In this document: positions 3,126 to 16,874 of the stretch, one piece after another
How the letters are laid out: each line of letters opens with the position of its first letter
Numbering within the stretch: position 1 is the first letter of the stretch
Assembly (NCBI RefSeq): GCF_019802285.1
Contig: NZ_JAIEUJ010000002.1
Location: 620,001 to 684,000, forward strand
Direction: 5' to 3'
Length of the DNA stretch: 64,000 bases
Origin: Novilysobacter antarcticus
GTDB lineage: Bacteria > Pseudomonadota > Gammaproteobacteria > Xanthomonadales > Xanthomonadaceae
Position numbers and translations under genes: made by a program
Notes under the pieces: generated by a model
Databases searched by the model: none
Told to the model about the DNA's origin: nothing
What the model saw: the letters and a program-made list of their open reading frames with translations, nothing else

Positions 3126-4228
3126 ACTGGACTGGCGATAGTGTCGGGACGGGCGCGGTCGAAAACCTCGTTGGCCCACAACATTACGATCATGTCTTCG
3201 TCACCGATGTTGGTGATGTCATGCGCCCATCCCGGTATGGTCTCCACAATTACCGGTTCCGCGCCTTCCGTTTCCACCTGATACGCTTCGTTGCTGAGGA
3301 CATGACGGAACCTGAAGCGAGCTTTTCCCTTTATTACTAAGAACTTTTCAGTCTTGGAGTGATGATAGTGACCACCACGGGTTATGCCGGGATGGGCGGT
3401 AAAAAACGACACCTGCCCGGAGTCCTTCGTTTTCAACATTTCCACGAAGACCCCGCGTTGATCCGCGTACTGCGGAATACTGTAACTGAAGGCGGCGGTA
3501 GGGAGATAACTGACGTACGTCGCGTATAGGGCGCGTACCAAGCCGGAACCGACCCGCTCAGTGGTGAGCGATTGCCGAGCCTCCACAAAGGCCTCGATCT
3601 GCCGGGCGAGTTCGCCGACAGTACTATTATAAACGGGGGACACCTCGGAAAACCCTGAATTGTCCGGGGGAGTAGACAGGAACCGGACTAATTCGGCCAC
3701 CACGTCGTCGATGTACACCAACGCCATAGGAGCTGCTGGATCGTCGATCCGAATCGGAAAACCACGTGCAATGTTGTGACAGAAGGTTGCTACCACAGAG
3801 TTGTAATTTGGTCGGCACCATTTGCCAAACACATTCGGTAGACGATAGATGGCCACTGGAGCACCCGCCTCTCTACCGTAGCGGAGCAGGAGCTCTTCGG
3901 CAGCGCGCTTGCTGGTCCCATAGGGCGTGTCGCGCTCGGCCTGGGTGGATGATGCAAAGGCGATCGGCACCGCTCGCCCGGCGTCGCAAAGGACATCACA
4001 CAGCCACGCACTTAGCCCGGTGTTGCAGATCGCAAATTCTGCGGGATCACCGGGACGGTTGACACCCGCAAGATGAATCACCGCGTCTGCTTCCCCGATG
4101 GCTTCAGCGAACTCCGCTTTGCTGGTGGCGCGTGTCACCGCCAGCACTTCCATGTCCGAGTGCTCGGAGAGGGCGACACGAAGATTTTTCCCGATGAATC
4201 CGTCAGCACCGGTGATCAGTATCTTCAT
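3122..4228 (-). CDS. fnlB: UDP-sugar C4 reductase with C-terminal cupin domain, second step of UDP-L-FucNAc synthesis
   Basis: This 368-residue protein is a fusion of an NAD(P)-binding SDR/epimerase domain (GADGFIG at 7-13, Tyr103-x3-Lys107) with a C-terminal cupin of the dTDP-4-dehydrorhamnose 3,5-epimerase type (GGHYHHSKTEKF and following strands). That two-domain build is typical of FnlB/WbjC/Cap5F, which epimerises at C3 and reduces C4 of the FnlA product to give UDP-N-acetyl-L-pneumosamine. The ATG at 4228 follows the fnlA TGA by two bases; a TTG at 4234 overlapping that stop is a less likely start. It sits between fnlA and fnlC in one operon. Confidence 0.9.
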   Translation of the reverse strand: MKILITGADGFIGKNLRVALSEHSDMEVLAVTRATSKAEFAEAIGEADAVIHLAGVNRPGDPAEFAICNTGLSAWLCDVLCDAGRAVPIAFASSTQAERDTPYGTSKRAAEELLLRYGREAGAPVAIYRLPNVFGKWCRPNYNSVVATFCHNIARGFPIRIDDPAAPMALVYIDDVVAELVRFLSTPPDNSGFSEVSPVYNSTVGELARQIEAFVEARQSLTTERVGSGLVRALYATYVSYLPTAAFSYSIPQYADQRGVFVEMLKTKDSGQVSFFTAHPGITRGGHYHHSKTEKFLVIKGKARFRFRHVLSNEAYQVETEGAEPVIVETIPGWAHDITNIGDEDMIVMLWANEVFDRARPDTIASPV

Positions 4229-4230
4229 GA

Positions 4231-5265
4231 TCAACCCTCTAGGCGTGGCGTGCGGCCGGCAATGAGGTCGCGAATGAACTGAAGTTTCAGCAGCAATTGC
4301 TTCATTCCTTCCACATCAAGTTGCTCCGTGTTGTGCGAATTGTAATCGTCGCTACGGGTGATACCGGGCTCACCTTGCTCTACATATTTGCCATAGTTGA
4401 GGTCTCGAAGATCGGGAGGAATGCGGAAGTAGCCCTCCAGATCCTGCGCATGGGCGCGCTCCTCCCGGCTGAGTAACGTTTCGTGAAGTTTCTCGCCATG
4501 TCGGGTTCCGATGACATCGATCTGATGTCGGGGTCTATCAAGGAGATCAAACAGCGCGTGCGCTAGGACCTCCAGCGTCGCTGCCGGCGCCTTCTGCACA
4601 AATATGTCGCCGCTATGTCCGTGCTCGAAGGCATACTGCACCAAGTCGACAGCATCATCCAACGTCATCATGAAACGCGTCATCGCGGGGTCGGTGATGG
4701 TCAACGGCTTGCCGGCGAGGATCTGCTCTACAAAGAGAGGGATCACCGAACCTCGTGATGCCATGACGTTGCCATAGCGAGTCCCGCAGATGGTTGTGCG
4801 CTCGGGGTCGGCGCTGCGTGACTTTGCCACGAACACCTTTTCCATCATCGCCTTAGAGATCCCCATCGCGTTAATCGGATAAACCGCCTTGTCGGTGCTG
4901 AGGCAGATGACCTTGCGCACGCCGCACTGGATGGCCGCCTCGACAACATGCTCGGTACCGATTACGTTGGTCTTCACTGCCTCCATTGGATGGAATTCAC
5001 AAGAAGGCACTTGCTTCAGCGCTGCCGCATGAAAGACGTAGTCAACGCCGCGCATTACGGTAAGGACAGACTGCGGATCACGTACGTCGCCAATATGAAA
5101 TTTGAGCTTCGGATTGGCGTAGAGCTTACGCATGTCATCCTGCTTCTTCTCATCGCGACTGAATATACGGACCTCATTGATATCGGTCTCCAGAAAACGC
5201 CGGAGCACGGCATTTCCGAACGACCCGGTCCCACCGGTGATCAGTAGTGTTTTCTTCTTAAACAT
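4231..5265 (-). CDS. fnlA: UDP-GlcNAc 4,6-dehydratase/5-epimerase, first step of UDP-L-FucNAc synthesis
   Basis: A short-chain dehydrogenase family sugar-nucleotide dehydratase of 344 residues. GGTGSFG (11-17) binds the dinucleotide. The catalytic region STDKAVYPINAMGISK has Met in place of the usual SDR Tyr (M134-x3-K138), as in the FlaA1/CapE/FnlA group. The C-terminal extension, including DLNYGKYVEQGE, is characteristic of FnlA/WbjB/Cap5E, not of PseB. The ATG at 5265 is preceded by a good Shine-Dalgarno (CGGAG, about 6 bases away) and matches the family start; the frame stays open to a GTG at 5289. It is first in the fnlABC operon, with an AT-rich 300-base region upstream where its promoter should lie. 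Confidence 0.92.
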   Translation of the reverse strand: MFKKKTLLITGGTGSFGNAVLRRFLETDINEVRIFSRDEKKQDDMRKLYANPKLKFHIGDVRDPQSVLTVMRGVDYVFHAAALKQVPSCEFHPMEAVKTNVIGTEHVVEAAIQCGVRKVICLSTDKAVYPINAMGISKAMMEKVFVAKSRSADPERTTICGTRYGNVMASRGSVIPLFVEQILAGKPLTITDPAMTRFMMTLDDAVDLVQYAFEHGHSGDIFVQKAPAATLEVLAHALFDLLDRPRHQIDVIGTRHGEKLHETLLSREERAHAQDLEGYFRIPPDLRDLNYGKYVEQGEPGITRSDDYNSHNTEQLDVEGMKQLLLKLQFIRDLIAGRTPRLEG

Positions 5266-5566
5266 GTATCGGCTCCGTTTCAACTTCACTGGTCAACACA
5301 AATATCTTGCAATCCGTCCAGAATGGCAGCGGGTATCCCCTCGACTCAGCGCCATGGAGAACTGGAATTCCTGATACTCGTCAAGACACGCCTAGCGTAT
5401 TTTGCTCAGAACTAGGACCTAAAAATCCCGAAACAGGAGCAAAAATGTCGGGCAAAAAACCGGCATTTGATATTGGAAATAGGATCGACTGATTTGCCAT
5501 ATTTAAACGCAAGAATCCGCTTTATTCGCGAACTTCAATCCATCCCGGAACATCGTGCATTTATCC
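5266..5566. other. AT-rich intergenic region upstream of fnlA
   Basis: About 300 bases without a gene, markedly richer in A+T than the housekeeping DNA further right. It should contain the fnlABC promoter and the end of the transcript from the 4-TM transporter gene, both reading on the minus strand. The one clear structure is the imperfect hairpin at 5442-5468, listed separately. I can name no promoter boxes with confidence. Confidence 0.55.
5442..5468 (-). terminator. Possible intrinsic terminator hairpin
   Basis: Inverted repeat with 9-bp arms (AAATGTCGG and CCGGCATTT on the plus strand, one mismatch) around an A-rich loop. On the minus strand the second arm runs into a T5 tract. It lies about 100 bases downstream of the 4-TM transporter gene in its direction of reading. 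The stem is AT-rich at its base, so it may equally be an operator-like or accidental repeat. Confidence 0.35.
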
Positions 5567-5944
5567 CTATGCTTTGGCAGTCAGGGTCATCAATAACACT
5601 CCGGCAGTGATCATGAAAATGCCGGCCCATTGCGCTCCGCCGAGCTTTTCTCCGTAAAGCCACCAGCTCGACAGCGCAATGAGGAAATAGAACAGTCCTC
5701 CCGAAATCGCAAACGCGATTCCCAGCTTCATCCGACTCACCACGACCACCCATACCAAAAATCCGACCCCCTGGATCGCAATGGCTGCGATGATACTGGG
5801 CGACAGGACTGCCGCCACCAGCCATTGTGCGCCCTTCAGATCCGGCATACGCTGGGCAATGGTGTTGACTCCATTCTTGATGAGCAACTGACTTGCCATC
5901 GTGGACAAAGTCACAAAGGAGATCATCAATATCTCGCGAATCAT
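5567..5944 (-). CDS. Small four-helix membrane transporter of the DMT (SMR/EamA) type
   Basis: A 125-residue, very hydrophobic protein with four predicted membrane helices (roughly residues 1-20, 40-68, 71-93 and 100-121), the size and layout of SMR proteins and of ArnE/ArnF subunits. Its ATG overlaps the stop of the GT4 gene as ATGA, so it is translationally coupled to a glycosyltransferase. In a polysaccharide locus the likely job is flipping a lipid-linked sugar across the inner membrane, like ArnEF or GtrA, not drug export. The substrate is an inference from context only. No lipobox or signal peptide. Confidence 0.72.
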   Translation of the reverse strand: MIREILMISFVTLSTMASQLLIKNGVNTIAQRMPDLKGAQWLVAAVLSPSIIAAIAIQGVGFLVWVVVVSRMKLGIAFAISGGLFYFLIALSSWWLYGEKLGGAQWAGIFMITAGVLLMTLTAKA

Positions 5945-7134
5945 CGGTCAGCACCATTCCGGACATGTTTGAAAGTCGCCTCAATGCAATCGACAGCATG
6001 TTCGACGGAAAATTTTTCGTTAACGAACGCTTGCCCACGTTTCCCAATAACTCCCAGTTGCGTGGGATCGATGAGCATTTCCATCATTTTTGACATGAAG
6101 GTATCCGGGTCATCCGAGACACTGTACTCGACCCCAGAAAGAGAAGAATGTTTCCGCACCAGATCAGGGAGTGGTGTTGAAAGCACCGGCAATCCGGCCG
6201 CCTGGTACTGCAAAATCTTGATCGGAATAATGTCCTTGGTGATGCTGTTTATCTCGAAGGGATTGAGTGCGAGTACTGCGAGAGACAAGTAGCGCGGTAC
6301 ATCTTGATAGGAAACCATTCCGGTCAACACCACTCGTCCCTGGAGTTCGAGCTCCTCTACCAGCGAGGCCAACTCCATGTCCTGATCACCGCCGCCGACG
6401 ATCAACAATTTGAGCGAGGGCATTTCTTCCAGTGCGACCGGCATCCTGCGAACCAGACTGACCAATCCGCTGAAGGAATAGGTGGTACCCAGAAACAGCG
6501 CAATGGTGTCTTGGTCGGACAGCCCATACAGCTCTCGCAGCGCCGCATCGGGGGGGCGTGGAGCAAAGTGGACACTATCCACGCCGTGATCCACTACGAC
6601 TGTTCGTGATGAAATGTCGGATCCCGCAATCCGCGAAGCATACGAACTCATCTCTTCATTGGTCACCAGCACTTTGTCAGCGTGACGATAGATGAAGCGC
6701 TCTCCGAGGCGAAGGATTGTTTGTATCGCCAGTCCCGGCCTGAGCCGATGATAGGCATCCAGCACCCGGTATACCACGGGCACTCCAAATTTCCGTCCCA
6801 AGCGGACCGCCTGGGTGCCATTGATGAATACCGAGTATACAAACACGACATCGATATTCCCGCGGCGCAGGCGGTCGACGAGCATTTTCCGGAAACGTAT
6901 GCGCGCCTCGATGAATTTGTAACCGGGCATGTTGCCATGCGCAATCCTGGTCAGCGTGACCGACCCCTCGCCGGTCCTGCTGACTTGCGAGCTTCCCGCA
7001 GATGTCCGCGACGCCTCATTGAAGTCAATGACTTCCACCTCATAGCCACGTCCTGCCAAGCGCTCAGGGAAGTCCTGATATTCGTATACAGGCTTTTCCA
7101 AGTATGGCACCTCATGAATCCAAAGAATCTTCAT
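5941..7134 (-). CDS. Glycosyltransferase family 4
   Basis: A 397-residue GT-B fold protein. The N-terminal half carries a Rossmann-like acceptor domain (MKILWIHEVPY start, then VVFVYSVFINGTQAVRLGRK). The C-terminal half has the GT4 pattern: VVVDHGVDSVHFAPRP, LLIVGGGDQ near the domain core, and EINSITKDIIPIKILQYQAAGLPVLSTP in two pieces containing the E-x7-E-like donor-binding region. It is cytosolic or peripheral and probably adds one residue of the O-antigen repeat; a FucNAc transferase is plausible because fnlABC is next door, but nothing in the sequence proves the donor. It lies 16 bases after the 885-residue membrane protein and overlaps the 4-TM gene. Confidence 0.85.
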   Translation of the reverse strand: MKILWIHEVPYLEKPVYEYQDFPERLAGRGYEVEVIDFNEASRTSAGSSQVSRTGEGSVTLTRIAHGNMPGYKFIEARIRFRKMLVDRLRRGNIDVVFVYSVFINGTQAVRLGRKFGVPVVYRVLDAYHRLRPGLAIQTILRLGERFIYRHADKVLVTNEEMSSYASRIAGSDISSRTVVVDHGVDSVHFAPRPPDAALRELYGLSDQDTIALFLGTTYSFSGLVSLVRRMPVALEEMPSLKLLIVGGGDQDMELASLVEELELQGRVVLTGMVSYQDVPRYLSLAVLALNPFEINSITKDIIPIKILQYQAAGLPVLSTPLPDLVRKHSSLSGVEYSVSDDPDTFMSKMMEMLIDPTQLGVIGKRGQAFVNEKFSVEHAVDCIEATFKHVRNGADR

Positions 7135-7150
7135 TATGACGCCCCCTTGG

Positions 7151-9808
7151 TCATCGTTTTAACTCCAGAATGTAGCTATTTCCTGAAGACGCAACCACCC
7201 GTTCGGATGATATGAGATCCTCCATTCCGGAAATGCAGGCACTAGCTCTTTCCGCCGGCAAGAACAAATACCTAACACCCTCCTCGTGAAGCCATTGGCG
7301 ATCGAAGATCTTGCACACATGCTCCTCGTAGTTCACTGTGCTGTAGTCGTCATCACCGTAGTAATAGTAGAACGCAAGGGGCATTCCAATTAAGTGGGGG
7401 GCGATTCTTGCCCCACCTACAGGAAAGACCCACCGCTCGCCTCCCAGTCGCAGAACGGAATTTGGCAGCAACATTCTATCGTCATTTTTATCCGGACCAT
7501 TATTTTTTTCTAAATACTCATCGAACGCAGCCAATACATCCATATCTGACTGATCTGCGCACCCCATTGAACCGCAGTATGAAAATCCCGGTTGAACGCG
7601 GTGTTGTTGCACTGGATGAACGAGGGAAGCCACCATCACTATAAACATAGTGCCGATCCCTGCAACCTTTATATTGGAACTTCCTTCTTTCGACAACGCT
7701 GAAATGCAGACCGAGAGCAGGTACGTCAACAACAATGCCTTATGCTGTGACAGGCTGAACTCAAAATATGGCGATAGCAGATAGAACCGAGCATCAGATA
7801 GAAGAGTACTAAACACCCCACTAGCGATCCAAACTGCCGTAACAACGACGCTTCCCATGAGCCAGACGGGCCAGACTTTGCCCGGCCCACGAAAAGCGGC
7901 CAAAACGGCAATCGGCGTAGAAGCAAGGATCAAAAAAACTGGCACCGGCTGTCCCGAATAGAGCTTAATTCCGTCAAGAACGAAGGACTTCCATTGAACT
8001 AGTTTTGGGGCTAACGCACGTAACATTTCCGCAGGGCTCAGAGTATTCATGTCCCCAATGAGCTGCACCTTTCCGCTCGCAACGCTTCCACCACCGATGA
8101 ATGCGCTGTAATAAGGATCAAGCATGAGCATGACTACTGCGACTGGAGGTACAAGCCATAACGGGGAGATCCGCCGGACTCTCGAAAAGTCAACGACCAG
8201 ATATCCGAACAGAAGTATGCATGGCACCACAATGTTTACCGGATTAAGAACTGCCAACACAAAGATACACAGCGAAAGCAACGTGAATTTTGCGGGTTTT
8301 TTCGAATCCCCAAGTCGCGCCCGTGACAACAGGAGCACTGCGAAAAGGGCAAACCAGATGACGCTTATCTGACGACCCAACCCCTCCATGTGACTGTATT
8401 GCTGGTAGAGCGGGAAAAGGAACCCGGCAGAGGTTACGCCAAGGGCAGTCAGGGCACTCAACATCTTTGCTATCGGATTCCTCAAGCAGCGGCTCGCCGC
8501 CTCGCCCAACAACAATGCTGCAAGTAGCGTCTGAATCAAAGGCAGCGCCGCCAACGCGTTCCTTACGTCGAGAAACGACAAGAGGGACCACAGATATGTA
8601 ATAGCCGCAGTGCCAGCCGGGTAGCCGAATGCACTGCTACCCCATCCGGAGGTTTCTCGCGGAATGGCTCCCAGTCGCTCCACTTGCTTGGCAAAAAATG
8701 AATGGATATCGGGATCGCTGGACAGCATAACTGCCCTCGGCAGTTCTCGGTCCGCAACCCACATCGCAATAGCGACAATAATCGCAACCTGGAGAATCAT
8801 CCAGTTTCGCGAATGAGACGTTCTCCACACACGGTGAAAGATATCCGTTCTGCACAGCACGTAGTACAAACAAGCGAGCACGACAACATACATCTCTGCT
8901 CGACTCATTCCGAGGTATGGAAAAATGCCTGCGATCATCGATCTTATATATACATAGGCAACAGAAACCGTTTGACCGAGTGCTATCCACAGGAAAAGAG
9001 ACGGTGTGTGCGCGTAACCAATCCGAAATCGGCTCGAGACAGCGGCGCCGACAGCCGCAAACGAACAGATTGCAAATACGAGTCTGGCGCCGTACTTCAA
9101 CCCCCGGCCGCTCACACAACCGCCGCCCTGACAGCCAACCCCCAATAACGAATAGCCCCACCATATCGCTACAACGATGATTGGAGCGAGCCACGCAGGG
9201 TTCCGAGATAAATACGCACCTATGCCAACCGTCAATCGCCGGCCATGTCGCCAAGCGAGACGTGCGCATATCGCCAATGCCAAGAGGCCGAGGATTGCCA
9301 AGCCAGCAACCCACGCCAAATCGATCTCGACAGAGATCGGCACATCAAAATCAAAGTGGGGATCTGTTCCTTTGGATTCGAACGCCAGCATGTCGCCCCC
9401 GTACAACGGCTCCAGCTGATTTATCGGCCGTATCCAGCGCGACAGTTCATGGCCAGATACGGTCTTACGGAGCGTGCCCTGCTCGATGCTTAAGCTGCTA
9501 ATCTTGACCAATCCAACTTTCGAACCGGGATCAATTCTTACCGACGTTACGACTTCTTTCGTTGGCAGTTCGAATGAATAGCGATGATAGTCCCCGTCAG
9601 GGCTTATCTCAAATTTAATCGATTTGGCTTCGCTGTAGCCTGCCCCCGATGCGTAGAACACTTGGCCATCTCGCGAAGTAGATGTCGCCATCTCCAATAC
9701 GACCGTCAGCGGGGACGGAGTGAGCCAATAAGCTAGTGCGCACATGCAAAAAACGAGCGTTGCGAGGAGCAACACTTCAGCTTTCAGCAGGGCGGTTTTC
9801 TTGCTCAT
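7151..9808 (-). CDS. Large multispanning membrane protein with N-terminal beta-domain, GT-C-like
   Basis: An 885-residue protein I do not recognise as a named family. It begins with one membrane helix (about 11-29), then a soluble domain of about 36-160 rich in beta-strand pattern (FELP, VRIDP, VKISSLSI, DPHFDFDV), then many membrane helices up to about 700 and a soluble tail with several Cys residues. The loop around 365-372 (DPDIHSFF) followed by a GYPAGT motif resembles the acidic first extracytoplasmic loop of GT-C/PMT-type glycosyltransferases that use polyprenyl-phosphate sugars. The N-terminal domain resembles one in the sulfotransferase-like protein of the same locus. Likely role: periplasmic sugar transfer onto the O-polysaccharide (inference). 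Confidence 0.6.
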   Translation of the reverse strand: MSKKTALLKAEVLLLATLVFCMCALAYWLTPSPLTVVLEMATSTSRDGQVFYASGAGYSEAKSIKFEISPDGDYHRYSFELPTKEVVTSVRIDPGSKVGLVKISSLSIEQGTLRKTVSGHELSRWIRPINQLEPLYGGDMLAFESKGTDPHFDFDVPISVEIDLAWVAGLAILGLLALAICARLAWRHGRRLTVGIGAYLSRNPAWLAPIIVVAIWWGYSLLGVGCQGGGCVSGRGLKYGARLVFAICSFAAVGAAVSSRFRIGYAHTPSLFLWIALGQTVSVAYVYIRSMIAGIFPYLGMSRAEMYVVVLACLYYVLCRTDIFHRVWRTSHSRNWMILQVAIIVAIAMWVADRELPRAVMLSSDPDIHSFFAKQVERLGAIPRETSGWGSSAFGYPAGTAAITYLWSLLSFLDVRNALAALPLIQTLLAALLLGEAASRCLRNPIAKMLSALTALGVTSAGFLFPLYQQYSHMEGLGRQISVIWFALFAVLLLSRARLGDSKKPAKFTLLSLCIFVLAVLNPVNIVVPCILLFGYLVVDFSRVRRISPLWLVPPVAVVMLMLDPYYSAFIGGGSVASGKVQLIGDMNTLSPAEMLRALAPKLVQWKSFVLDGIKLYSGQPVPVFLILASTPIAVLAAFRGPGKVWPVWLMGSVVVTAVWIASGVFSTLLSDARFYLLSPYFEFSLSQHKALLLTYLLSVCISALSKEGSSNIKVAGIGTMFIVMVASLVHPVQQHRVQPGFSYCGSMGCADQSDMDVLAAFDEYLEKNNGPDKNDDRMLLPNSVLRLGGERWVFPVGGARIAPHLIGMPLAFYYYYGDDDYSTVNYEEHVCKIFDRQWLHEEGVRYLFLPAERASACISGMEDLISSERVVASSGNSYILELKR

Positions 9809-9851: not shown

Positions 9852-10403
9852 TCACTCGACAACCAGCATTCGCGCATCGAGATCACACTCCTTCTGCGCC
9901 GCTGTCGATGTGCCCGAAATGATGACCAACGCATAGCTCCCGGGAATCATGTCGACTCGGGCAAGAAGGTTGTAACCGGAGGTGGCGAGCGCCTCGCTGG
10001 ACAATGCCTTGGCAACGTCGGGACGGGCCACGCCGGCGAGAACCGGAATCGAATACGACCTTCCTTCGCCTCGAAAAACGAACAACGCGTCTGCCGGCAC
10101 CTGCTTGTCGTCATCCGCCACCCAACCGGAAAACCACACTTCCGTTCCGGCCTTCACTGAGGTCAACCTCGCGTCTCCACCGTTCACGGCGTCAAGGGCA
10201 CAGGATCCACCTGTCATCGCGGGTTCCGTCGCGACAAAGTCCTCGACCGGGACCGGCTCAATACTCCCGCTGCCATCCAGCGGGCCCGCGATCATGGATG
10301 CCGCGGATTCGCCCGCCGGGGTTGCGACCTCACTTGTTCCGCATCCGCTCAGCACACCCGCTACCAGCAGGGCGCACAATCCGGCGGTTGAGCCTGGCCT
10401 CAT
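9852..10403 (-). CDS. Hypothetical lipoprotein in the LPS locus
   Basis: A 183-residue protein with a lipoprotein signal: basic start, hydrophobic core, then VLSGC as lipobox. After a low-complexity linker comes a single domain of about 110 residues with a beta-rich look (TEVWFSGWVADD, ALFVFRGEGRSYSIPV, ARVDMIPGSYALVIIS), ending in a Cys-containing strand. I recognise no family. Its ATG overlaps the stop of the tandem GT2 gene as ATGA, so it belongs to the same operon, and it precedes the 885-residue membrane protein by 43 bases. A periplasmic or outer-membrane role in polysaccharide handling is a guess from position. Confidence 0.7.
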   Translation of the reverse strand: MRPGSTAGLCALLVAGVLSGCGTSEVATPAGESAASMIAGPLDGSGSIEPVPVEDFVATEPAMTGGSCALDAVNGGDARLTSVKAGTEVWFSGWVADDDKQVPADALFVFRGEGRSYSIPVLAGVARPDVAKALSSEALATSGYNLLARVDMIPGSYALVIISGTSTAAQKECDLDARMLVVE

Positions 10404-12718
10404 TGCGATATCTCCTTCGTAATTCCCTCAGCTCGCAGGGCCAAGAGAGTGGAAAAGCCCGCCAGATATTTTCTCGGCGGAAATGCAAGATCGAACGGGA
10501 CCCCGGCCACGGTCAGGTTGGGGTTGTAGCAGGGGTCGGCCAACAGGGAGTCTCCCCAGCGTGACAGCATAATTTTGATCTCGCCGTTGAACCGAGCGAT
10601 TTTCTCGGGGGTATCCTCATAACCCCGAGATGCGGATTCGTGATGGTACAGCGTGGCATAGGGCGTCCACAGGTTGCGATAACCGGCCGCCAGTACCTTG
10701 ACGCAGAAATCGACATCATTGAACGCAATAGTCAATGTCTCATCCAGCCCACCTACCTCATCGAACACCTCTTTGCGTACCAACAGGCACGCGGCGGTGA
10801 CCGCAGACATCTCTTGGGCGAGCAAAGCCCGCCCGCACTGGCCATTGGTACCGGCCGGCAACCCCGTATAGGCGTGGCCTGCAACACTGCCCATGCCCAG
10901 CACCACGCCGGCGTGCTGGATGGTGTCGTTGGGGTAGTACAACATCGCGCCAACGGCTCCGATCTCCGGGCGGATGGCCTGGCTGACCATGATCGTCATC
11001 CAGTCTGGCGTGATCACCTCGATGTCGTTGTTCACCAGCCCGATGACCGAGCCAGTGGCGCGTTTAGCGGCGTAGTTGTTGATCTTGGAATAATTGAAAG
11101 GCGCATCGTAGTGCAGTACGCGTACTCGTGACTCGGACCCCAACTCTCGGAAGTAATCGAATGTCGCAGCCTCCTGCGACTGATTATCGACGATGATTAT
11201 TTCGTAATCCGGGTAATTGGTTTTGTCGAGGATGCTCTGCACGCACATGCGCAGCAGTTCGACCTTGTCCCGCGTCGGGATGATCAGGCTGACCCTGGGG
11301 GGCGATGGAAGCTCGCGATATACATTCAGGTGCCCGGAGTGGTTGATCTCGATGCGCGCGCGCTGCCCGGTGCGCTTCAAATGTTCCTCAACCGCACGCC
11401 AGCCAGCGCTGCCGGCGTAATCCTTCTGCTGGACCCCCAGCGCGGTCGAACCTGCGATGGCGCGCCAGTGATAAAGGACCTTGGGCACATGGCCGATCTC
11501 GTCAGGCCGTAGCTTCTCCACGCATCGCAACGCAAGATCCCAGTCCTGCGCGCCCTCGAAACCCTTCCTGAAGCCGCCCACCTCACGCACCAGTGCAGTC
11601 TCGTATATCCCCAGGTGGCTGATGCAGTTCTGGGACAGGAACAACTCGTAATTCCAATCGGGCTTGAAGTACGGTGAAAACCGCACGCCTTTGCCGTCGA
11701 TCTTGTCTTCGTCGGAATAAACCAAACGCCATTGCGGACTGATGTTGATAGCCTTGACCATTTCCAGCAGAGAGTGCGGACGCAGCTCATCGTCGTGATC
11801 CAGCAGCGCAATGTATTCACCCTCCGCAAAATCCAGGGCCGAATTGGTCGCCTCCGAGATATGCCCGTTGTGTTCGCGGATGTGAACGCGTATGCGTGGA
11901 TCGCGCTGCGCATATTCGTCCAGCACCCGACGTACGTGCCGCGATGGTGATGCATCATCGGCGATGCACAGCTCCCAGTTCGGATAGACCTGCGCCAAGA
12001 CACTGTCAAGGCATTTCCGCAGCCAGCGCTCCTTGGGTTCGTACACCGGAACAAGGATCGATACGAGCGGCTGGTGCGTCAGCTCGGCGACTTTCTCATG
12101 CAGGAGCTCGACATCCACTGTGCTGAGGGTGTCGTAATTTCGTACCCAGGCCACGTAATCGTCTGCGGCGGGTTGGATCAATTGCATGTAGCGAGCGTAG
12201 GCATCCTGACCGCCCTGGCGTAGCCTTCCAGTGCAGGCAGCCCGCGCGAAAGGCAGCAGCACATCGCGTGAGCGCTGCCAATCCCGCTCAGGGCCGGCAA
12301 CGCCGATCACCATCCGCGCCAGTGCTTCGATGCGACTCAGACGACGCAGCCGCACGTAGGGCAGGCGAAAGCGTGCCGTCTTGGTACTGGGATCAAAACG
12401 CAGCTGGGTGACCGGATGCTTCAGGAGGATAACGGCGCGGATGCGACCGTTTTCATCGGGTTCCGGCAGCAGCACCCGTCCGGACTCCGCGATGCCCACA
12501 CCGTAGTCCGGATATAGGCAGGGGGACATCAGCAGTCCTTCGACCTTCTCGAAATCCGCTTCGAAAAGATACCAGCCGCCTTTGAGCGCCAGCTGACGGT
12601 CACCCAACAGGAACTGCGGGTCTTCGTTGCGGGAAAGCCAGAAGTCGCCGTCCGGACCGTGATCTTCCCGCAGAATATTTGCCAGCGGGATCAGACCCAG
12701 CCTGTATGACGCGCTCAT
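10400..12718 (-). CDS. Tandem-domain family 2 glycosyltransferase (WbbL/rhamnosyltransferase-like)
   Basis: A 772-residue protein with two GT2 domains. The first spans about 217-430 (VSILVPVYEPKE, IADDAS, LLDHDDE at 305-311). The second begins at about 475 with VSLIIPTRDK, then IIVDNQSQE, GLVNNDIEVITPDW and the DVDFCVKVLAAGYRNLWTP region. Such double GT2 proteins often build disaccharide units of bacterial O-chains. The N-terminal 140 residues are not GT2: they contain NEDPQFLL and LRFDPSTKTARFRLPYVRL, echoing the beta-domain motifs of two other proteins of the locus. It follows the sulfotransferase-like gene by 19 bases and overlaps the lipoprotein gene. Donor sugars are unknown. Confidence 0.85.
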   Translation of the reverse strand: MSASYRLGLIPLANILREDHGPDGDFWLSRNEDPQFLLGDRQLALKGGWYLFEADFEKVEGLLMSPCLYPDYGVGIAESGRVLLPEPDENGRIRAVILLKHPVTQLRFDPSTKTARFRLPYVRLRRLSRIEALARMVIGVAGPERDWQRSRDVLLPFARAACTGRLRQGGQDAYARYMQLIQPAADDYVAWVRNYDTLSTVDVELLHEKVAELTHQPLVSILVPVYEPKERWLRKCLDSVLAQVYPNWELCIADDASPSRHVRRVLDEYAQRDPRIRVHIREHNGHISEATNSALDFAEGEYIALLDHDDELRPHSLLEMVKAINISPQWRLVYSDEDKIDGKGVRFSPYFKPDWNYELFLSQNCISHLGIYETALVREVGGFRKGFEGAQDWDLALRCVEKLRPDEIGHVPKVLYHWRAIAGSTALGVQQKDYAGSAGWRAVEEHLKRTGQRARIEINHSGHLNVYRELPSPPRVSLIIPTRDKVELLRMCVQSILDKTNYPDYEIIIVDNQSQEAATFDYFRELGSESRVRVLHYDAPFNYSKINNYAAKRATGSVIGLVNNDIEVITPDWMTIMVSQAIRPEIGAVGAMLYYPNDTIQHAGVVLGMGSVAGHAYTGLPAGTNGQCGRALLAQEMSAVTAACLLVRKEVFDEVGGLDETLTIAFNDVDFCVKVLAAGYRNLWTPYATLYHHESASRGYEDTPEKIARFNGEIKIMLSRWGDSLLADPCYNPNLTVAGVPFDLAFPPRKYLAGFSTLLALRAEGITKEISQ

Positions 12719-12737: not shown

Positions 12738-14636
12738 TCAATGGCGGCCCCGCAGTCGCCGCCACCAGTAGCCTAAAGACCGTCGTTGGGCCCAACTCAA
12801 CAGAACGCCTTGTTGTTCTCGCATAGACTCGAGTTCCGCGATCACCGCCTCGTTCTGTGCGTGGGTGGCCTGAAGCTCCTCGCGGGCGTGTGCAAGTGAC
12901 GCCTGAAGGCGATCATGTTCTGTCCGCCGGTTCTGTATCTCCTCACCCAGAGCGACATGAAACGACCGCGTGGCTGCCTCCATCAAGCTGACGTCGTTCG
13001 AGATACCGATGGCGGACTCGCCGAACTTCGACAGACGCTGCTCGAGCAATTCGACGCATTCGGTCAAACGGCGCTGCCGCTCTCCCAGATCCCGTTGAGC
13101 GTGCTCGATCTCCTGACCGGAATCCTTGAGGTATCCGGCGATTTCCGACAACACCGTTTCAGCGCGGAAACGGACTTCGACCTGCGACGGGCCATCGGTA
13201 TGGCTCCATTCCAGACCGCGGACGTCCAACTCGAAATGGGGGTCCTCGCCAAGGGCGGCAAACCGGATTCCGCCCCGGTGAGACGTTACGGGCAAGGCGA
13301 ACTCATTCATGGCGTTGACCCGGTCGGCGAGGTCTTCCACGACCTTGCCTCCGATGCTCAACGACCAGATCGCGAACGCGCCCGGCGCATCATCGGGATC
13401 GATTCGCAGGTGCTCGACCTTCGCACCCTCGGGAAGCTCGAACACCACATGCTGGCCGTCTTCCATCAGTACCGGATCGGCAAACAACGACCGGGACTCG
13501 TTAAAAGGCGTCGACGTCTCCCTGTAATACAGGCGGCATGCACCGGGCATCCGGGCTGGCAACGCCGGACGCCACAGTTCACGCAATGCCGCGATCTGCA
13601 GCGACATGTCTACCCGGGACTGGTCCAACGCCTGGCGCTGCAATTCATCCTCCAGCCGGAGGGGCGCGTCCAGGTAGCCGGCCGCCACTCGTGCGAGCTT
13701 CGCCGTGATCGCGTCGAACCCCTCGTCCGCCCGATTCCCGGCAGGATCGGCCGCGCAATGCAGAGCCAGGCCGTACAGCTCCAGAGCCAGGGGCTCGAAT
13801 GGAGACACCGGCTTTCCACCCCGTTCCGCTTGATTATTGCGTAGGGACACATCGAGGAACCCGTCGATCTCCTCCGCAACTGCCGTTGTCGCGAGAAGGG
13901 CGACACCTAGACGCTTCCTCATGCGATCCATCTCGATCCGCCAGTCCGCCAGCAACGCCTCATACGACACGAACGCCCGCGGCAGCTCGCGGCTGGCGCG
14001 CTCGGCCTCCAGCAGGTAGGTCATCCACAGCAGATGCGCGCGTGACCGTGACAATCCGTCGCGCTTGTGCAGCGAGCCGGCTACTTCGTTGGGATGCCGG
14101 ACCATCAGCAACGCGCTCGGGCGGGCTCCTGCTTGCGCCGCGACGTCCAGCCACAAGGGCACCACCCGGCTGCTGCGCGGATCCTTCACAGCCGCCACAG
14201 CGGCATCAGCATCGGCATCGGCATCGGCAAACATGTCACGCAGGAGCGGTACCAGCGCCACGCGCGCCTCGTCGGCGGCCGCACTTTCCCTCCAGTTCGG
14301 CGGCAACGGACGCGGGTCGTGCCAGGGACGATGGAACGCCGCGAACAACGTTTCCTGCGCGGCCACCACCCGCGCATTTTCGAAATATCCCTTGGGGTTG
14401 TCGGAGGTCGGCGGCAGCAGCTCCTCGCCCAGTGTCACGCCGAGCTTTCCCAGCACACCGGTGAGCGCGGACGTCCCGCTGCGGTGCATGCCAAGCACCA
14501 ACAGAAGGTCGCGCCCGGCCCGCCCTCCCGCGACCGCGCCCGCATCGCCTTCCGCTGCCGTCGGTGTCGGCGCGGGAAGATCAGCGTCCGTAGGTGCCTG
14601 CGATCTGTCCAGTCCTGCCGTCTCTTTTGTGCTCAT
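12738..14636 (-). CDS. Sulfotransferase-like protein with beta-domain and C-terminal coiled coil
   Basis: 632 residues in three parts. Residues about 44-300 are a sulfotransferase-type P-loop domain: VLGMHRSGTSALTGVL at 47-62 fits the 5'-phosphosulfate loop, and MVRHPNEVAGSLHKR at 178-192 fits the 3'-phosphate region. Residues about 370-490 form a beta-rich domain (FELP, LRIDP, WSLSI, EDPHFELDV). Residues about 495-612 are heptad-like and charged (coiled coil), ending in a basic, Trp-rich tail (residues 615-632) that could lie on the membrane. An Ala-Asp repeat (138-145) is encoded by a hexanucleotide repeat. It ends where wzt begins (4-base overlap region), so it is coupled to the exporter. 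The role is not established; a chain-capping enzyme is discussed in the findings. Confidence 0.75.
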   Translation of the reverse strand: MSTKETAGLDRSQAPTDADLPAPTPTAAEGDAGAVAGGRAGRDLLLVLGMHRSGTSALTGVLGKLGVTLGEELLPPTSDNPKGYFENARVVAAQETLFAAFHRPWHDPRPLPPNWRESAAADEARVALVPLLRDMFADADADADAAVAAVKDPRSSRVVPLWLDVAAQAGARPSALLMVRHPNEVAGSLHKRDGLSRSRAHLLWMTYLLEAERASRELPRAFVSYEALLADWRIEMDRMRKRLGVALLATTAVAEEIDGFLDVSLRNNQAERGGKPVSPFEPLALELYGLALHCAADPAGNRADEGFDAITAKLARVAAGYLDAPLRLEDELQRQALDQSRVDMSLQIAALRELWRPALPARMPGACRLYYRETSTPFNESRSLFADPVLMEDGQHVVFELPEGAKVEHLRIDPDDAPGAFAIWSLSIGGKVVEDLADRVNAMNEFALPVTSHRGGIRFAALGEDPHFELDVRGLEWSHTDGPSQVEVRFRAETVLSEIAGYLKDSGQEIEHAQRDLGERQRRLTECVELLEQRLSKFGESAIGISNDVSLMEAATRSFHVALGEEIQNRRTEHDRLQASLAHAREELQATHAQNEAVIAELESMREQQGVLLSWAQRRSLGYWWRRLRGRH

Positions 14637-16066
14637 TCGTTGGTACCTATTATTCTGAACGAGCTCGCCGGCTCACTCGCAAGATCATAGAACCCTACTT
14701 TCACCCGGTCGTTGGCCCGGTGCTCCACCTTGAACATCAACACGTCCAGCATGCGGTGGAGGAACGATCCATCGACACCCTGGGCGCACCCGTTCACCCC
14801 GGCATTCATGAAATAGGTGCCGGGGAGCAGCTTGGAGTCGAAGTTGAACTCGACCAAGTAGACGTCGCCGGCCCGCACGGAATCGATCGCATCACCAAAC
14901 GCGTGGCTGGCCATGCCGAACAACTCCACCCCGGCGACCGATTTGATCATCATGCCGAAATGAACAAGCCGGGCATCGCTGTCGAACTTGACACGATACC
15001 GGTAGCGATACGGTCGCCCCGGAACCAGCACATTGACTCTCTCGCCATCGGCGTTGACCAGATGCGGGTCGGATATCCGTGCGCCGCGGCTTTCATACTC
15101 GACCGTACTTTCCGACCGCAGACCCGGATCGTATCGCTCTGCATCGGATTGGTCATACGCCGCGATTACCGCTTGGTGCTCCGCAGCGGCACCGACCTGC
15201 TGCGGATCCTCTACGAGGGATTCCTCCCCCATCGAACGAAATTGGCGTCGCATCTGTTTACGCCTGTCGGGCGAGGCGTACAGCAGCTTCTGATACAGCG
15301 CGACCGTGGCCTTGGGTTGGCCTGAAAACACCAGTTCGCCGGCATCCAGCAGGATCGCGCGATCGCACAACTGGACGACGCTGCCCGCCGAATGGGAAAC
15401 AAACAAAATGGTGCAACCGGACCGTTTCAATTCCTCTATGCGGGCGAAGCACTTGCGCTGGAACGCTTCGTCGCCCACCGACAGCGCCTCGTCAATGATC
15501 AGTATCTGGGGGTCGGTATTGATCGCCACCGCGAATGCGAGGCGGATGTACATGCCGCTGGAATAGGTCTTCACCGGTTGCTCGATGAAATCCCCGATAT
15601 CCGCGAACGCCACGATGGCGTCGAAACGCGCATCCACTTCATGCCGGTTCAGGCCGAGCACCGCGGCATTCAGGTAGATGTTCTCCCGGCCGGTGAAGTC
15701 TGGGTTGAATCCGGCGCCCAGTTCCAGCAGCGCCGCGACCCTCCCGTTGACGCTGACGGTCCCCTGGGTGGGCTGCAGGATGCCGCAGATGACCTGGAGC
15801 AATGTCGACTTTCCGGAACCATTGCGACCGACTATGCCCACGGTCTCGCCGCGCCGGATGACGACGCTGATACCGTCAAGCGCCTGGAAACGCCCGTACC
15901 AGCCATCCGCGCGGGCGCGCAGGAGGCCGTGGATGAAGCGCTGGTGCGGCTTTCCGTACATTCTGAAAACCTTGGACACCGCATCGAGGCGGATCACCTC
16001 GTCGGCCGCCATTTCAACCGTCGCGCCATCTGCCGCGACGCCATCAGTCCTCGCCTCACAGGACAT
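14633..16066 (-). CDS. wzt: ABC transporter ATPase for O-polysaccharide export, with C-terminal carbohydrate-binding domain
   Basis: 477 residues. The ATPase domain has Walker A GIVGRNGSGKST (77-88), the YSSGM signature, Walker B ILIIDEALSVGDE and the H-loop VSHSAG. From about residue 300 there is an extra domain (RYDPGLRSEST to the end) with the beta-strand pattern of the Wzt-C domain that, in E. coli O8/O9a, binds the modified non-reducing end of the glycan before export. The ATG at 16066 overlaps the wzm stop by 11 bases and has a strong GGGGA Shine-Dalgarno about 6 bases upstream; the frame is open further upstream. With Wzm it would move undecaprenyl-linked O-chain across the inner membrane. 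Confidence 0.93.
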   Translation of the reverse strand: MSCEARTDGVAADGATVEMAADEVIRLDAVSKVFRMYGKPHQRFIHGLLRARADGWYGRFQALDGISVVIRRGETVGIVGRNGSGKSTLLQVICGILQPTQGTVSVNGRVAALLELGAGFNPDFTGRENIYLNAAVLGLNRHEVDARFDAIVAFADIGDFIEQPVKTYSSGMYIRLAFAVAINTDPQILIIDEALSVGDEAFQRKCFARIEELKRSGCTILFVSHSAGSVVQLCDRAILLDAGELVFSGQPKATVALYQKLLYASPDRRKQMRRQFRSMGEESLVEDPQQVGAAAEHQAVIAAYDQSDAERYDPGLRSESTVEYESRGARISDPHLVNADGERVNVLVPGRPYRYRYRVKFDSDARLVHFGMMIKSVAGVELFGMASHAFGDAIDSVRAGDVYLVEFNFDSKLLPGTYFMNAGVNGCAQGVDGSFLHRMLDVLMFKVEHRANDRVKVGFYDLASEPASSFRIIGTNE

Positions 16067-16874
16067 CGGCAAATCCCCGGCGCGTCGACTGGAACCACAG
16101 GCTGCCCAGGTAGGCAAAAACCAGGCTGAAGAACAGATACCACGCCAGGCCCGACCAATTGGGCAGGATGCCCCACAGGGCCACGTTCCGCATTTCGTCG
16201 ATGATGAATGTCAACGGATTCAGATGGAATATCTTCTGGTATGTATCGGGCAAGGCGCTGACCGGAATGATGGCCGACGACAGGAACAGCATCGCCGTCG
16301 CGATCGGCCCGGTGATCTGGTTGATATCGCGAAAATAAACACCCAGCGCAGCCAGGAACCAGGCCAATCCGGAGAGCAACACCAGCATTGGCAAGATCAC
16401 CAGCGGCACCAGCACGATGGTCGAGGGCAACGGCCCCTCAAGCACCAGATGCACCAAGGTGAACACCACCAGATTCATCGTGAAATGAAACAACGCCGAC
16501 AGCAGCATGGGCCACGGCAATATCTCAAGTGGGAAGATGATCCGCTTGACGTAGTTGGGATTGCTGACTACCAGCATCGGTGACCGCATCAGGCATTCGG
16601 CAAAGAAGCCGTGGACAATCAGTCCGGCGAACAGGATCAGCGCGAAGTTCGAGGTCCCGCCGCCCATCACCGGCCACTTCGCGCGCAATATCTCGCCAAA
16701 CGCCACGCTGTAAACGATCACCATCATCAACGGGCCGAGCAAGGTCCAGATCAGGCCCAGGCTGGCGCCACGGTAGCGGCCCAAGACCTCGCGCTTGGTC
16801 ATTTCCCAGGTGAGCGAGCCATGCCTGGTGACCGCACCGAGCGCGCTGGCCGCGCTTAAAAAACGATTGCCCAT
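16056..16874 (-). CDS. wzm: ABC-2 type permease for O-polysaccharide export
   Basis: A 272-residue membrane protein with about six helices and the N-terminal amphipathic start seen in Wzm/TagG-type permeases (TKREVLGRYRGASLGLIWTLLGP). It contains the NPNYVKRIIFPLEILP motif, which is typical of polysaccharide ABC-2 permeases and contacts the ATPase. It pairs with the overlapping wzt to form the channel for the finished O-chain. It is the first gene of the transport section, 55 bases downstream of metB on the same strand. The pair implies an ABC-dependent pathway; no Wzx flippase, Wzy polymerase or Wzz is seen in the locus. Confidence 0.94.
   Translation of the reverse strand: MGNRFLSAASALGAVTRHGSLTWEMTKREVLGRYRGASLGLIWTLLGPLMMVIVYSVAFGEILRAKWPVMGGGTSNFALILFAGLIVHGFFAECLMRSPMLVVSNPNYVKRIIFPLEILPWPMLLSALFHFTMNLVVFTLVHLVLEGPLPSTIVLVPLVILPMLVLLSGLAWFLAALGVYFRDINQITGPIATAMLFLSSAIIPVSALPDTYQKIFHLNPLTFIIDEMRNVALWGILPNWSGLAWYLFFSLVFAYLGSLWFQSTRRGFADVL

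What the first reader, a model, noticed from the sequence alone, without database searches (positions are those of the whole stretch)
12738..14636. Sulfotransferase-coiled-coil protein as a candidate O-chain terminator and length ruler
In E. coli O8/O9a, WbdD caps the chain with a kinase/methyltransferase and measures length with a C-terminal coiled coil ending at the membrane; the cap is then read by the Wzt C-terminal domain. Here a gene coupled to a wzt with such an extra domain encodes a PAPS-type P-loop domain, a beta-domain, about 115 residues of heptad-like sequence and a basic Trp-rich tail. The architecture suggests sulfate capping with a ruler, which I do not know to be described.
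Basis: inference. Interest (0 to 1): 0.8.

Follow-up and report, generated by a model that had tools for sequence, protein, structure and literature searches.

The report
Sulfotransferase cap-and-ruler for O-antigen chains
A bacterial gene next to the exporter of a long surface sugar chain appears to end each chain with a sulfate group at a length set by a rod-like coiled coil, a way of capping such chains that I did not find described.

Summary
The feature is real: a 632-residue minus-strand ORF (12738-14636) whose start overlaps the wzt stop (ATGA). It has a sulfotransferase-fold domain with PAPS motifs invariant in 66 homologues, a beta-domain, about 120 residues of proline-free helix with heptad period, and a basic Trp tail. 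Foldseek's three hits with E<=0.001 are all sulfotransferases.

Comparative evidence supports the terminator reading. The gene after wzt is a "terminator slot": in relatives with a Trp-type Wzt it mostly holds methyltransferases, and about half of the non-sulfotransferase slot proteins have a coiled coil. In the Wzt cap domain, the position of A. aeolicus Trp362 (published to stack on a methyl cap) is Arg in 42 of 42 retained rows from loci with this sulfotransferase and Trp in 46 of 51 others. E. coli O9/O99 (methyltransferase plus kinase) have Arg; O8/O60 (methyltransferase) have Trp. Some coils contain in-register tandem duplications.

Limits: no sulfate, chain-length or binding data; Arg/Trp is one change on the tree; many homologues are not beside wzt, and some lie with a Wzt lacking a cap domain. 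Verdict: probably a sulfate-cap variant of the WbdD-type polymerase-terminator-ruler system, not found described in the library searched; a key review was not held.

The parts
12738..14636 (-). Candidate sulfotransferase chain terminator with coiled coil, 632 aa (P0001)
13842..14513 (-). Sulfotransferase-fold domain, residues about 42-265; PSB loop GMHRSGTS 49-56, KDPR 151-154, 3'-PB pair R180/S188 (8 apart)
   Evidence: Residues 49-56, 151-154, 180 and 188 invariant in 66 sequences; pLDDT mostly above 90; the three Foldseek hits with E<=0.001 are sulfotransferases. Motif names recalled.
13158..13550 (-). Beta-domain, residues 363-493, also present in the neighbouring multi-spanning protein
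   Evidence: no PDB match with E<=0.001
12786..13154 (-). Long helices / predicted coiled coil, residues 495-542 and 549-617
12741..12788 (-). Basic, Trp-rich C-terminal tail (candidate membrane or partner contact)
   Evidence: sequence, kept in some relatives, helix 621-628
14633..16117 (-). wzt, ABC-transporter ATPase with C-terminal cap-binding domain (TTG start as called; the true start may lie further in)
   Evidence: Wzt_C 100.7 bits
14663..15115 (-). Wzt cap-binding domain, residues 335-485 of the called ORF
14753..14755 (-). Codon of Wzt Arg455, aligned with A. aeolicus Wzt Trp362 (cap-stacking residue)
16056..16874 (-). wzm, ABC-transporter permease
   Evidence: ABC2_membrane 90.3 bits
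10400..12718 (-). GT2: 772 aa protein with two glycosyltransferase-2 stretches, candidate polymerase; nearly whole GT2 fused to the sulfotransferase in L033, L034, L035
7151..9808 (-). 885 aa protein, multi-spanning by its sequence (GT-C-like; no Pfam match), carrying the same beta-domain (residues 48-157)

Best explanation
The protein is the chain terminator and ruler of an ABC-transporter-dependent O-antigen. Its N-terminal sulfotransferase moves sulfate from PAPS to the non-reducing end of the growing, lipid-linked chain and so stops growth. The coiled coil holds that active site at a fixed distance from the membrane-proximal end and the GT2 polymerase, so only chains that span the rod reach it. 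The Wzt cap-binding domain then recognises the anionic sulfate through a pocket that includes Arg455, and only capped chains are exported by Wzm/Wzt. Shown by computation: sulfotransferase fold and motifs, helix/heptad architecture, gene slot, co-occurrence with Arg-type Wzt domains, fusion to GT2 in relatives. Inferred: activity, the sugar acceptor, one sulfate per chain, length control, cap reading.
For: Fold and motifs: 66-sequence alignment with invariant GMHRSGTS, KDPR, R180 and S188; AlphaFold pLDDT mostly above 90 in this domain; the 3 Foldseek hits with E<=0.001 are sulfotransferases.

Slot: ATGA overlap with wzt. ST is the first gene within 250 bp after wzt in 17 of 40 fetched Xanthomonadaceae ST loci and 18 of 80 named loci (at least 7 named loci are the same genomes as unnamed ones). 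In 46 loci with Trp-type Wzt and no ST hit, 27 next genes hit Methyltransf_11, 5 FkbM, 4 Methyltransf_24 (overlap between families not excluded).

Coiled coil >=42 residues by my own heptad measure: 29 of 39 ST and 31 of 62 non-ST slot proteins, against 0 of 141 CGS/CBS/Wzm ORFs, 0 of 90 Wzt, 27 of 542 other ORFs and 2 of 39 shuffled ST.

Cap reader: Arg at Wzt 455 in 42 of 42 retained rows whose locus holds the ST; of 51 others 46 Trp, 5 Arg, one of them L132 with a divergent ST. With the dropped rows put back (117): ST loci 53 Arg, 1 Asp, 5 without the position; others 52 Trp, 6 Arg. E. coli O9 and O99 R, O8 and O60 W. A. aeolicus Trp362 stacks on the methyl cap and W362L essentially abolishes LPS binding (PMC9445017 passages); alignments.

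Independent scan: the window's cap domain against 398 genomes, then the ST profile in the flanks: 4 of the 5 best places besides itself lie beside this ST; a weaker one, L228, lies beside a Sulfotransfer_1 protein with a coil-like end.

Other sulfotransferases directly after wzt: L128, L132 (divergent relatives), L152, L171.

Fusion: 19 of 40 ST ORFs carry a GT2 match. PAPS supply: two CysD-CysNC pairs, one beside cysJ/cysI, one apart.
Against: No sulfate, PAPS-binding, export or chain-length data. [quoted passage not shown] a single terminal group could be missed. The Arg/Trp switch is one change on the cap-domain tree, so the rows are not independent. Arg also occurs beside proteins in which only a methyltransferase was matched (L117; L224) or methyltransferase and glycosyltransferase but no kinase (L127), a GT8-like gene (L227), a glycosyltransferase (L119), a DUF4915 protein (L118) and in L134. 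One ST-locus Wzt (L070) has Asp, and L058 aligns as Arg but as a gap. 23 of 40 fetched Xanthomonadaceae ST loci do not have ST right after wzt, and 10 of the 40 stretches show no wzt. In 7 of 80 named loci the best wzt hit is only 224-282 aa, too short for a cap domain (L154, L165, L166, L173, L184, L188, L215). The second half of the window's coil has no significant heptad signal of its own. The named loci, and the 40 best-scoring Xanthomonadaceae loci, were found by the ST itself.
Confidence: 0.55

Rival explanations
1. Sulfate cap without a ruler: the protein caps chains and certifies them for export, but the helices serve oligomerisation and recruitment and do not set length.
For: Helix lengths vary widely and 10 of 39 slot STs have no stretch of 42 or more by my measure; half of the window's own coil is weak.
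Against: Enrichment of the coil in the slot, in-register tandem duplications in several relatives, and the ruler function reported for E. coli O9 and K. pneumoniae O12 terminators (PMC11231755).
Confidence: 0.2
2. Tailoring enzyme: the sulfotransferase sulfates internal sugars of each repeat, and the coiled coil is only a scaffold that ties it to the polymerase and exporter.
For: Sulfotransferases are fused to GT2 modules; many homologues lie in stretches with no visible wzt and 7 of 80 named loci have a Wzt too short for a cap domain. Sulfated repeats are reported for other polysaccharides (titles and abstract starts in the listing).
Against: The slot is shared with methyltransferases and other sulfotransferases; the paired Wzt cap pocket has Arg. 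In A. salmonicida no sulfate was reported in the O-antigen.
Confidence: 0.17
3. The sulfotransferase fold has been repurposed (inactive, or transferring another group) and acts as a glycan-binding or structural domain.
For: Pfam score below the family cut-off; no catalytic assay.
Against: Cofactor motifs invariant across 66 diverse sequences; a second CysD-CysNC pair in the genome.
Confidence: 0.06

Closest known systems
WbdD of E. coli O9/O9a and O8 (kinase-methyltransferase or methyltransferase terminator with coiled-coil ruler)
   Same: Gene after wzt; N-terminal capping catalysis; C-terminal coiled coil; partner of a Wzt with cap-binding domain and of a polymerase gene (PMC3482155 passages).
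   Different: Catalytic domain is a sulfotransferase, not methyltransferase/kinase; an extra beta-domain precedes the coil.
ORF6 of K. pneumoniae O7 (methyltransferase-kinase, CBM-like domain, coiled coil, fused GT2 modules)
   Same: Order catalytic domain, beta-type domain, coiled coil, and GT2 modules fused in relatives (PMC11231755; here).
   Different: Sulfotransferase instead of methyltransferase-kinase; in the window GT2 is a separate gene.
WbbB (O12) and ORF7-O4, Kdo-adding terminators
   Same: Coiled-coil protein whose cap is read (O12) or predicted to be read (O4) by a Wzt cap-binding domain.
   Different: The cap there is a sugar (Kdo), here a proposed sulfate.
Aeromonas salmonicida ORF19, 216 aa sulfotransferase-domain protein between wzt and wbbB
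   Same: Sulfotransferase beside wzt (PMC4483657 passages).
   Different: At 216 aa probably too short for a domain plus long coil; function not assigned by its authors.
PAPS sulfotransferase domains of olefin synthase / curacin pathway and human TPST2
   Same: Fold and cofactor motifs.
   Different: Other substrates and no ruler (recalled).

Membership tests
PAPS-dependent sulfotransferase | 5'-phosphosulfate loop and 3'-phosphate-binding Arg/Ser eight residues apart (motif knowledge recalled) | tested here: met
   GMHRSGTS 49-56, R180 and S188 invariant in 66 sequences
PAPS-dependent sulfotransferase | Sulfotransferase fold | tested here: met
   4gox 9.8e-6, 3ap3 3.2e-5, 4gbm 6.3e-5, the only hits with E<=0.001
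PAPS-dependent sulfotransferase | Transfers sulfate from PAPS | not testable with these tools
   Only supply genes seen
Pfam PF13469 Sulfotransfer_3 | Score over the curated cut-off | tested here: not met
   18.9 bits against 27; relatives L219, L220, L150 pass
Polymerase-terminator-ruler system (WbdD type, by function) | N-terminal capping enzyme joined to a C-terminal coiled coil | tested here: met
   (architecture only; capping itself not shown)
Polymerase-terminator-ruler system (WbdD type, by function) | Coupled to Wzt with cap-binding domain | tested here: met
   ATGA overlap; Wzt_C 100.7 bits
Polymerase-terminator-ruler system (WbdD type, by function) | C-terminus recruits the polymerase at the membrane | tested here: inconclusive
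   Basic Trp tail kept in some relatives and GT2 fusion in relatives; contact not shown
Polymerase-terminator-ruler system (WbdD type, by function) | Caps the chain end and sets its length | not testable with these tools
   Needs glycan chemistry and mutants
WbdD protein family (homology) | Methyltransferase and/or kinase domain | tested here: not met
   Neither matched in P0001; found in E. coli O8/O9/O99 slot proteins

The most novel reading that the evidence does not exclude
Sulfate is a further general cap chemistry for ABC-exported polysaccharides. Several distinct sulfotransferase families have been recruited to the post-wzt slot. A Trp/Arg switch at one Wzt cap-pocket position tells methyl caps from anionic ones (sulfate or methylphosphate). 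The ruler's length evolves by tandem duplication of whole heptad blocks (63 or 84 bp units), giving a tunable O-chain length.
Probability: 0.4. Interest if true: 0.85.

Novelty: new variant of a known kind. Interest (0 to 1): 0.72.

Why it matters
Caps named in the papers I opened are methyl, (methyl)phosphate and special sugars such as Kdo (PMC9445017, PMC11231755). A sulfate cap read by an Arg pocket would add a cap chemistry, make the cap of many unstudied O-antigens predictable from sequence (slot enzyme plus Trp or Arg in Wzt), and supply rulers whose repeat number could be counted and compared with chain length.

Tried and rejected
Rejected or weak leads.

(1) Nearness of a CysD-CysNC pair (12 kb left of the window) to the cluster as evidence of dedicated PAPS supply: rejected, because APS-kinase genes also lie 22-26 kb from Wzt_C genes in genomes without this ST (G082, G099, G245). 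Counts, read by eye: two copies in 10 of 72 ST genomes against 6 of 175 without; none in 2 of 72 against 23 of 175 (the five unlisted zero genomes inferred from gaps in the list). Fisher p 0.008 and 0.018, not corrected for kinship; at least eight of the zero genomes share genus g29.

(2) Identity of the beta-domain: a separate AlphaFold model gave no PDB match with E<=0.001.

(3) Treating the Arg rows as independent evidence: rejected after the tree showed one change.

(4) Label test on Wzt trees: ST versus other needs 4 changes on the cap-domain tree and 5 on the ATPase tree; shuffled means 28.4 and 28.5, minima 23 and 21. The two domains hardly differ, so this shows that Wzt and the slot gene travel together in this sample, not that the cap domain alone does; much of the sample was found by the ST. 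93 of 117 Wzt rows were used (truncated, duplicate and gap >250 bp rows dropped); the 24 dropped rows were read later.

(5) Promoter and terminator scan found no more than shuffles.

(6) Sequence search of the PDB with the ST profile gave only weak hits.

(7) Slots not readable: L222 (no same-strand gene seen), L225 (short stretch), L096 (no gene found). L226 has an RSGST-like start but no Pfam sulfotransferase match.

(8) Repeats with lag 38 in L155 and L184 lie outside the coil by inspection and were not counted as ruler repeats.

(9) Sampling: fetched the 40 best-scoring of 72 genomes with an ST hit (one of the 72, G144, matches only residues 361-531) and 60 genomes with Wzt_C but no ST hit, chosen by me mainly from the top of a cut list (177 of 247 genomes have Wzt_C). 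The 39 ST slot proteins include two with gaps of 475 and 699 bp and one genome counted twice (L187, L059).

Full report
OBSERVATION. The ORF at 12738-14636 is on the minus strand, 632 aa, uninterrupted. Its ATG overlaps the wzt stop as ATGA, and the next gene, GT2 (772 aa, two glycosyltransferase-2 stretches), begins 19 nt on. Order on the minus strand: wzm 16056-16874, wzt 14633-16117, this ORF, GT2 10400-12718, a small protein 9852-10403, a multi-spanning protein 7151-9808, a GT4-like gene 5941-7134, a small EamA-like gene 5567-5944, then FnlA-like (below its cut-off), FnlB/WbcJ-like and WecB-like genes 4231-5289, 3122-4234 and 1974-3179. From recalled pathway knowledge the last three could make UDP-L-FucNAc.

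CATALYTIC DOMAIN. Pfam gives only a sub-threshold Sulfotransfer_3 match (18.9 bits, cut-off 27). The alignment of 66 sequences keeps GMHRSGTS (49-56), E86, KDPR (151-154), R180 and S188 invariant. The spacing R180/S188 is the one I recall for the 3'-phosphate site of PAPS sulfotransferases. AlphaFold (mean pLDDT 81.5, mostly above 90 in this domain) and Foldseek (the three matches with E<=0.001 are sulfotransferases) agree. The genome has two CysD-CysNC pairs: one beside cysJ and cysI and one with no further sulfur-assimilation gene among the eight proteins I scanned around it.

RULER AND TAIL. Residues 493-609 hold no proline and have a peak hydrophobic period of 3.54, reached by 0.1% of 1000 shuffles. 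The signal sits in 493-548; 549-609 alone is not significant. The model has helices 495-542 and 549-617 and a short one 621-628. The basic Trp tail is kept in L032, L038 and L039, partly in L033, not in L034/L035. My own heptad measure, which is not a published predictor and counts a coil anywhere in the protein, finds stretches of at least 42 residues in 29 of 39 ST proteins after wzt, 31 of 62 non-ST proteins after wzt, 0 of 141 CGS/CBS/Wzm ORFs, 0 of 90 Wzt, 27 of 542 other ORFs and 2 of 39 shuffled ST proteins. Several ST coils are tandem arrays: amino-acid lags of 28, 21, 14 or 35 (all multiples of 7) in L041, L042, L043, L045, L046, L047, L051, L059, L069, L157, L174 and L208, with L187 repeating L059. 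DNA arrays of 84 bp occur in L041, L042, L045 and L069 and of 63 bp in L059. Non-ST slot proteins show other lags (18, 25, 34, 38, 39, 46, 50, 53). Coil repeats favour multiples of 7 by nature, so the register is expected; the near-identity of some copies suggests recent duplication. The window scan showed no repeat of 30 bp or longer period.

THE SLOT AFTER WZT. Of 247 family genomes, 72 have an ST match and 177 have Wzt_C. I fetched the 40 best-scoring ST loci and 60 Wzt_C loci from genomes without an ST match. ST is the first gene within 250 bp after wzt in 17 of the 40; in 10 of the 40 no wzt was seen in the stretch. In the 60, the next genes fall into several families (representatives). 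In the 46 with Trp-type Wzt, 27 hit Methyltransf_11, 27 Methyltransf_23, 5 FkbM and 4 Methyltransf_24; counts by family may overlap, and no sulfotransferase is among the 25 families shown of 26. Two of the 60 (L128, L132) carry a divergent sulfotransferase (profile E 3e-42 and 3e-29), and their Wzt cap domains are the two nearest to the window's. Other sulfotransferases directly after wzt: L152 and L171. In 80 named loci from several phyla, found by the ST itself, 18 have it within 250 bp after wzt; they include Luteimonas deserti, Stenotrophomonas pictorum, Dyella, Rhodanobacter, Sulfuricella and Desulfogranum. In seven of the 80 the best wzt hit is only 224-282 aa, too short for a cap domain.

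INDEPENDENT SCAN. The window's cap domain alone was searched against 398 genomes of the phylum: 16 genomes, 18 places. Apart from the window, 4 of the 5 best places have this ST in the 1.5 kb flank (L219, L220, L221, L223; not L222). Of the 12 weaker places none has it by profile, but L228 has a Sulfotransfer_1 protein with a coil-like C-terminus (63.6 bits). L224 and L235 have methyltransferases and L227 a GT8-like gene. These numbers are small.

THE CAP READER. In the A. aeolicus transporter, Trp362 stacks on the 3-O-methyl cap and W362L essentially abolishes LPS binding (PMC9445017, passages). The PDB chain alignments put that Trp (chain 363, paper 362; the offset is inferred from the paper's other residues) at the window's Wzt R455. 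Among 93 retained Wzt cap domains, all 42 whose locus holds the ST have Arg; of the 51 others 46 have Trp and 5 Arg, one of the five being L132 with its divergent ST. Putting back the 24 dropped rows: 53 of 59 ST-locus rows Arg, 1 Asp (L070), 5 without the position (three of them Wzts of 224-282 aa; L058/L170 align as a gap here though L058 as Arg); others 52 Trp, 6 Arg. Other pocket positions also change: T346 to Asn and A348 to Gly in 35 and 36 of 43 ST-linked domains, and Arg at each in six. As a test outside the sample I fetched E. coli wzt genes: O9 (L236) and O99 (L238), whose slot proteins have methyltransferase plus protein-kinase matches (O99's kinase match is just under its cut-off), have Arg; O8 (L237) and O60 (L239) have Trp (the O8 slot protein matches methyltransferase and no kinase, the O60 one is annotated as methyltransferase and was not scanned). 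O9-type chains carry methylphosphate and O8-type methyl (PMC3482155 passages; PMC11231755). The switch is one change on the cap-domain tree, so the agreement is mechanistically telling but not many independent cases. Arg without a known anionic-cap enzyme beside it: L117 and L127 (methyltransferase matched, no kinase matched), L118, L119, L224, L227 and L134.

POLYMERASE LINK. 19 of 40 ST ORFs also match GT2, three of them (L033, L034, L035) over nearly the whole of it. This fits the published layout in which terminators with coils are separate from, or fused to, GT2 polymerase modules (PMC11231755, part 1 of 2 of the Discussion). The beta-domain of the window protein recurs in the multi-spanning protein 7151-9808 and its relatives; a published terminator also has a CBM-like domain before its coil, but no fold match was found here.

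VERDICT. The best reading is a sulfate-cap version of the WbdD-type polymerase-terminator-ruler system. It would work like that system; it is not a member of the WbdD protein family, whose methyltransferase/kinase domains were not matched. Searches of the held library found no sulfotransferase described as such a terminator; I opened passages of five papers (PMC4483657, PMC11231755, PMC3071791, PMC9445017, PMC3482155) and read none whole; the review I looked for was not held, so absence from print is not proven. Published hint: a sulfotransferase-domain gene between wzt and wbbB in A. salmonicida, left unexplained. On a second check against the calls I lowered the best explanation from 0.68 to 0.55 and the novel case from 0.45 to 0.40, because the first odds summed with the rivals to more than one and because short Wzts and further Arg exceptions had been left out.

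Noticed in passing
window 9338-9667 (residues 48-157 of 7151-9808) and 13158-13550: The same beta-domain occurs in the terminator candidate and in the neighbouring multi-spanning protein, where by sequence it seems to lie between membrane segments; perhaps both recognise the same glycan.
   Followed up: partly
L118:2500-6159: The protein right after an Arg-type wzt has a DUF4915 N-terminus, a coil made of about four 46-residue repeats (138 bp, 99% match at DNA level) and a GT match near the C-terminus: a possible terminator of unknown cap chemistry.
   Followed up: partly
L117:7752-10664: Methyltransferase protein after wzt with a 75-bp repeat array of about nine copies in its C-terminal half.
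   Followed up: no
L124:9428-10495 and L137:9477-10517: Proteins directly after wzt that look like membrane acyltransferases, with Trp-type cap domains; the set A5, which holds both, has two Acyl_transf_3 matches (members not named). Possibly an acyl cap.
   Followed up: no
window 1974-5289: FnlA-, FnlB/WbcJ- and WecB-like genes, suggesting L-FucNAc in the O-antigen.
   Followed up: no
L075:4930-7865 (12 kb left of the window) and L076:6307-9224: Two CysD-CysNC pairs in the genome; the second lies beside cysJ/cysI, the first has none among the neighbours scanned.
   Followed up: partly
L033:11001-12767: A second, different sulfotransferase domain (44.1 bits, over the cut-off) downstream of wzt in a cluster that also has the ST-GT2 fusion.
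   Followed up: no
L154, L166, L173, L188: Sulfotransferases of this family about 1.9 kb downstream of a short Wzt (228-247 aa) with no room for a cap domain: a different use of the enzyme.
   Followed up: no
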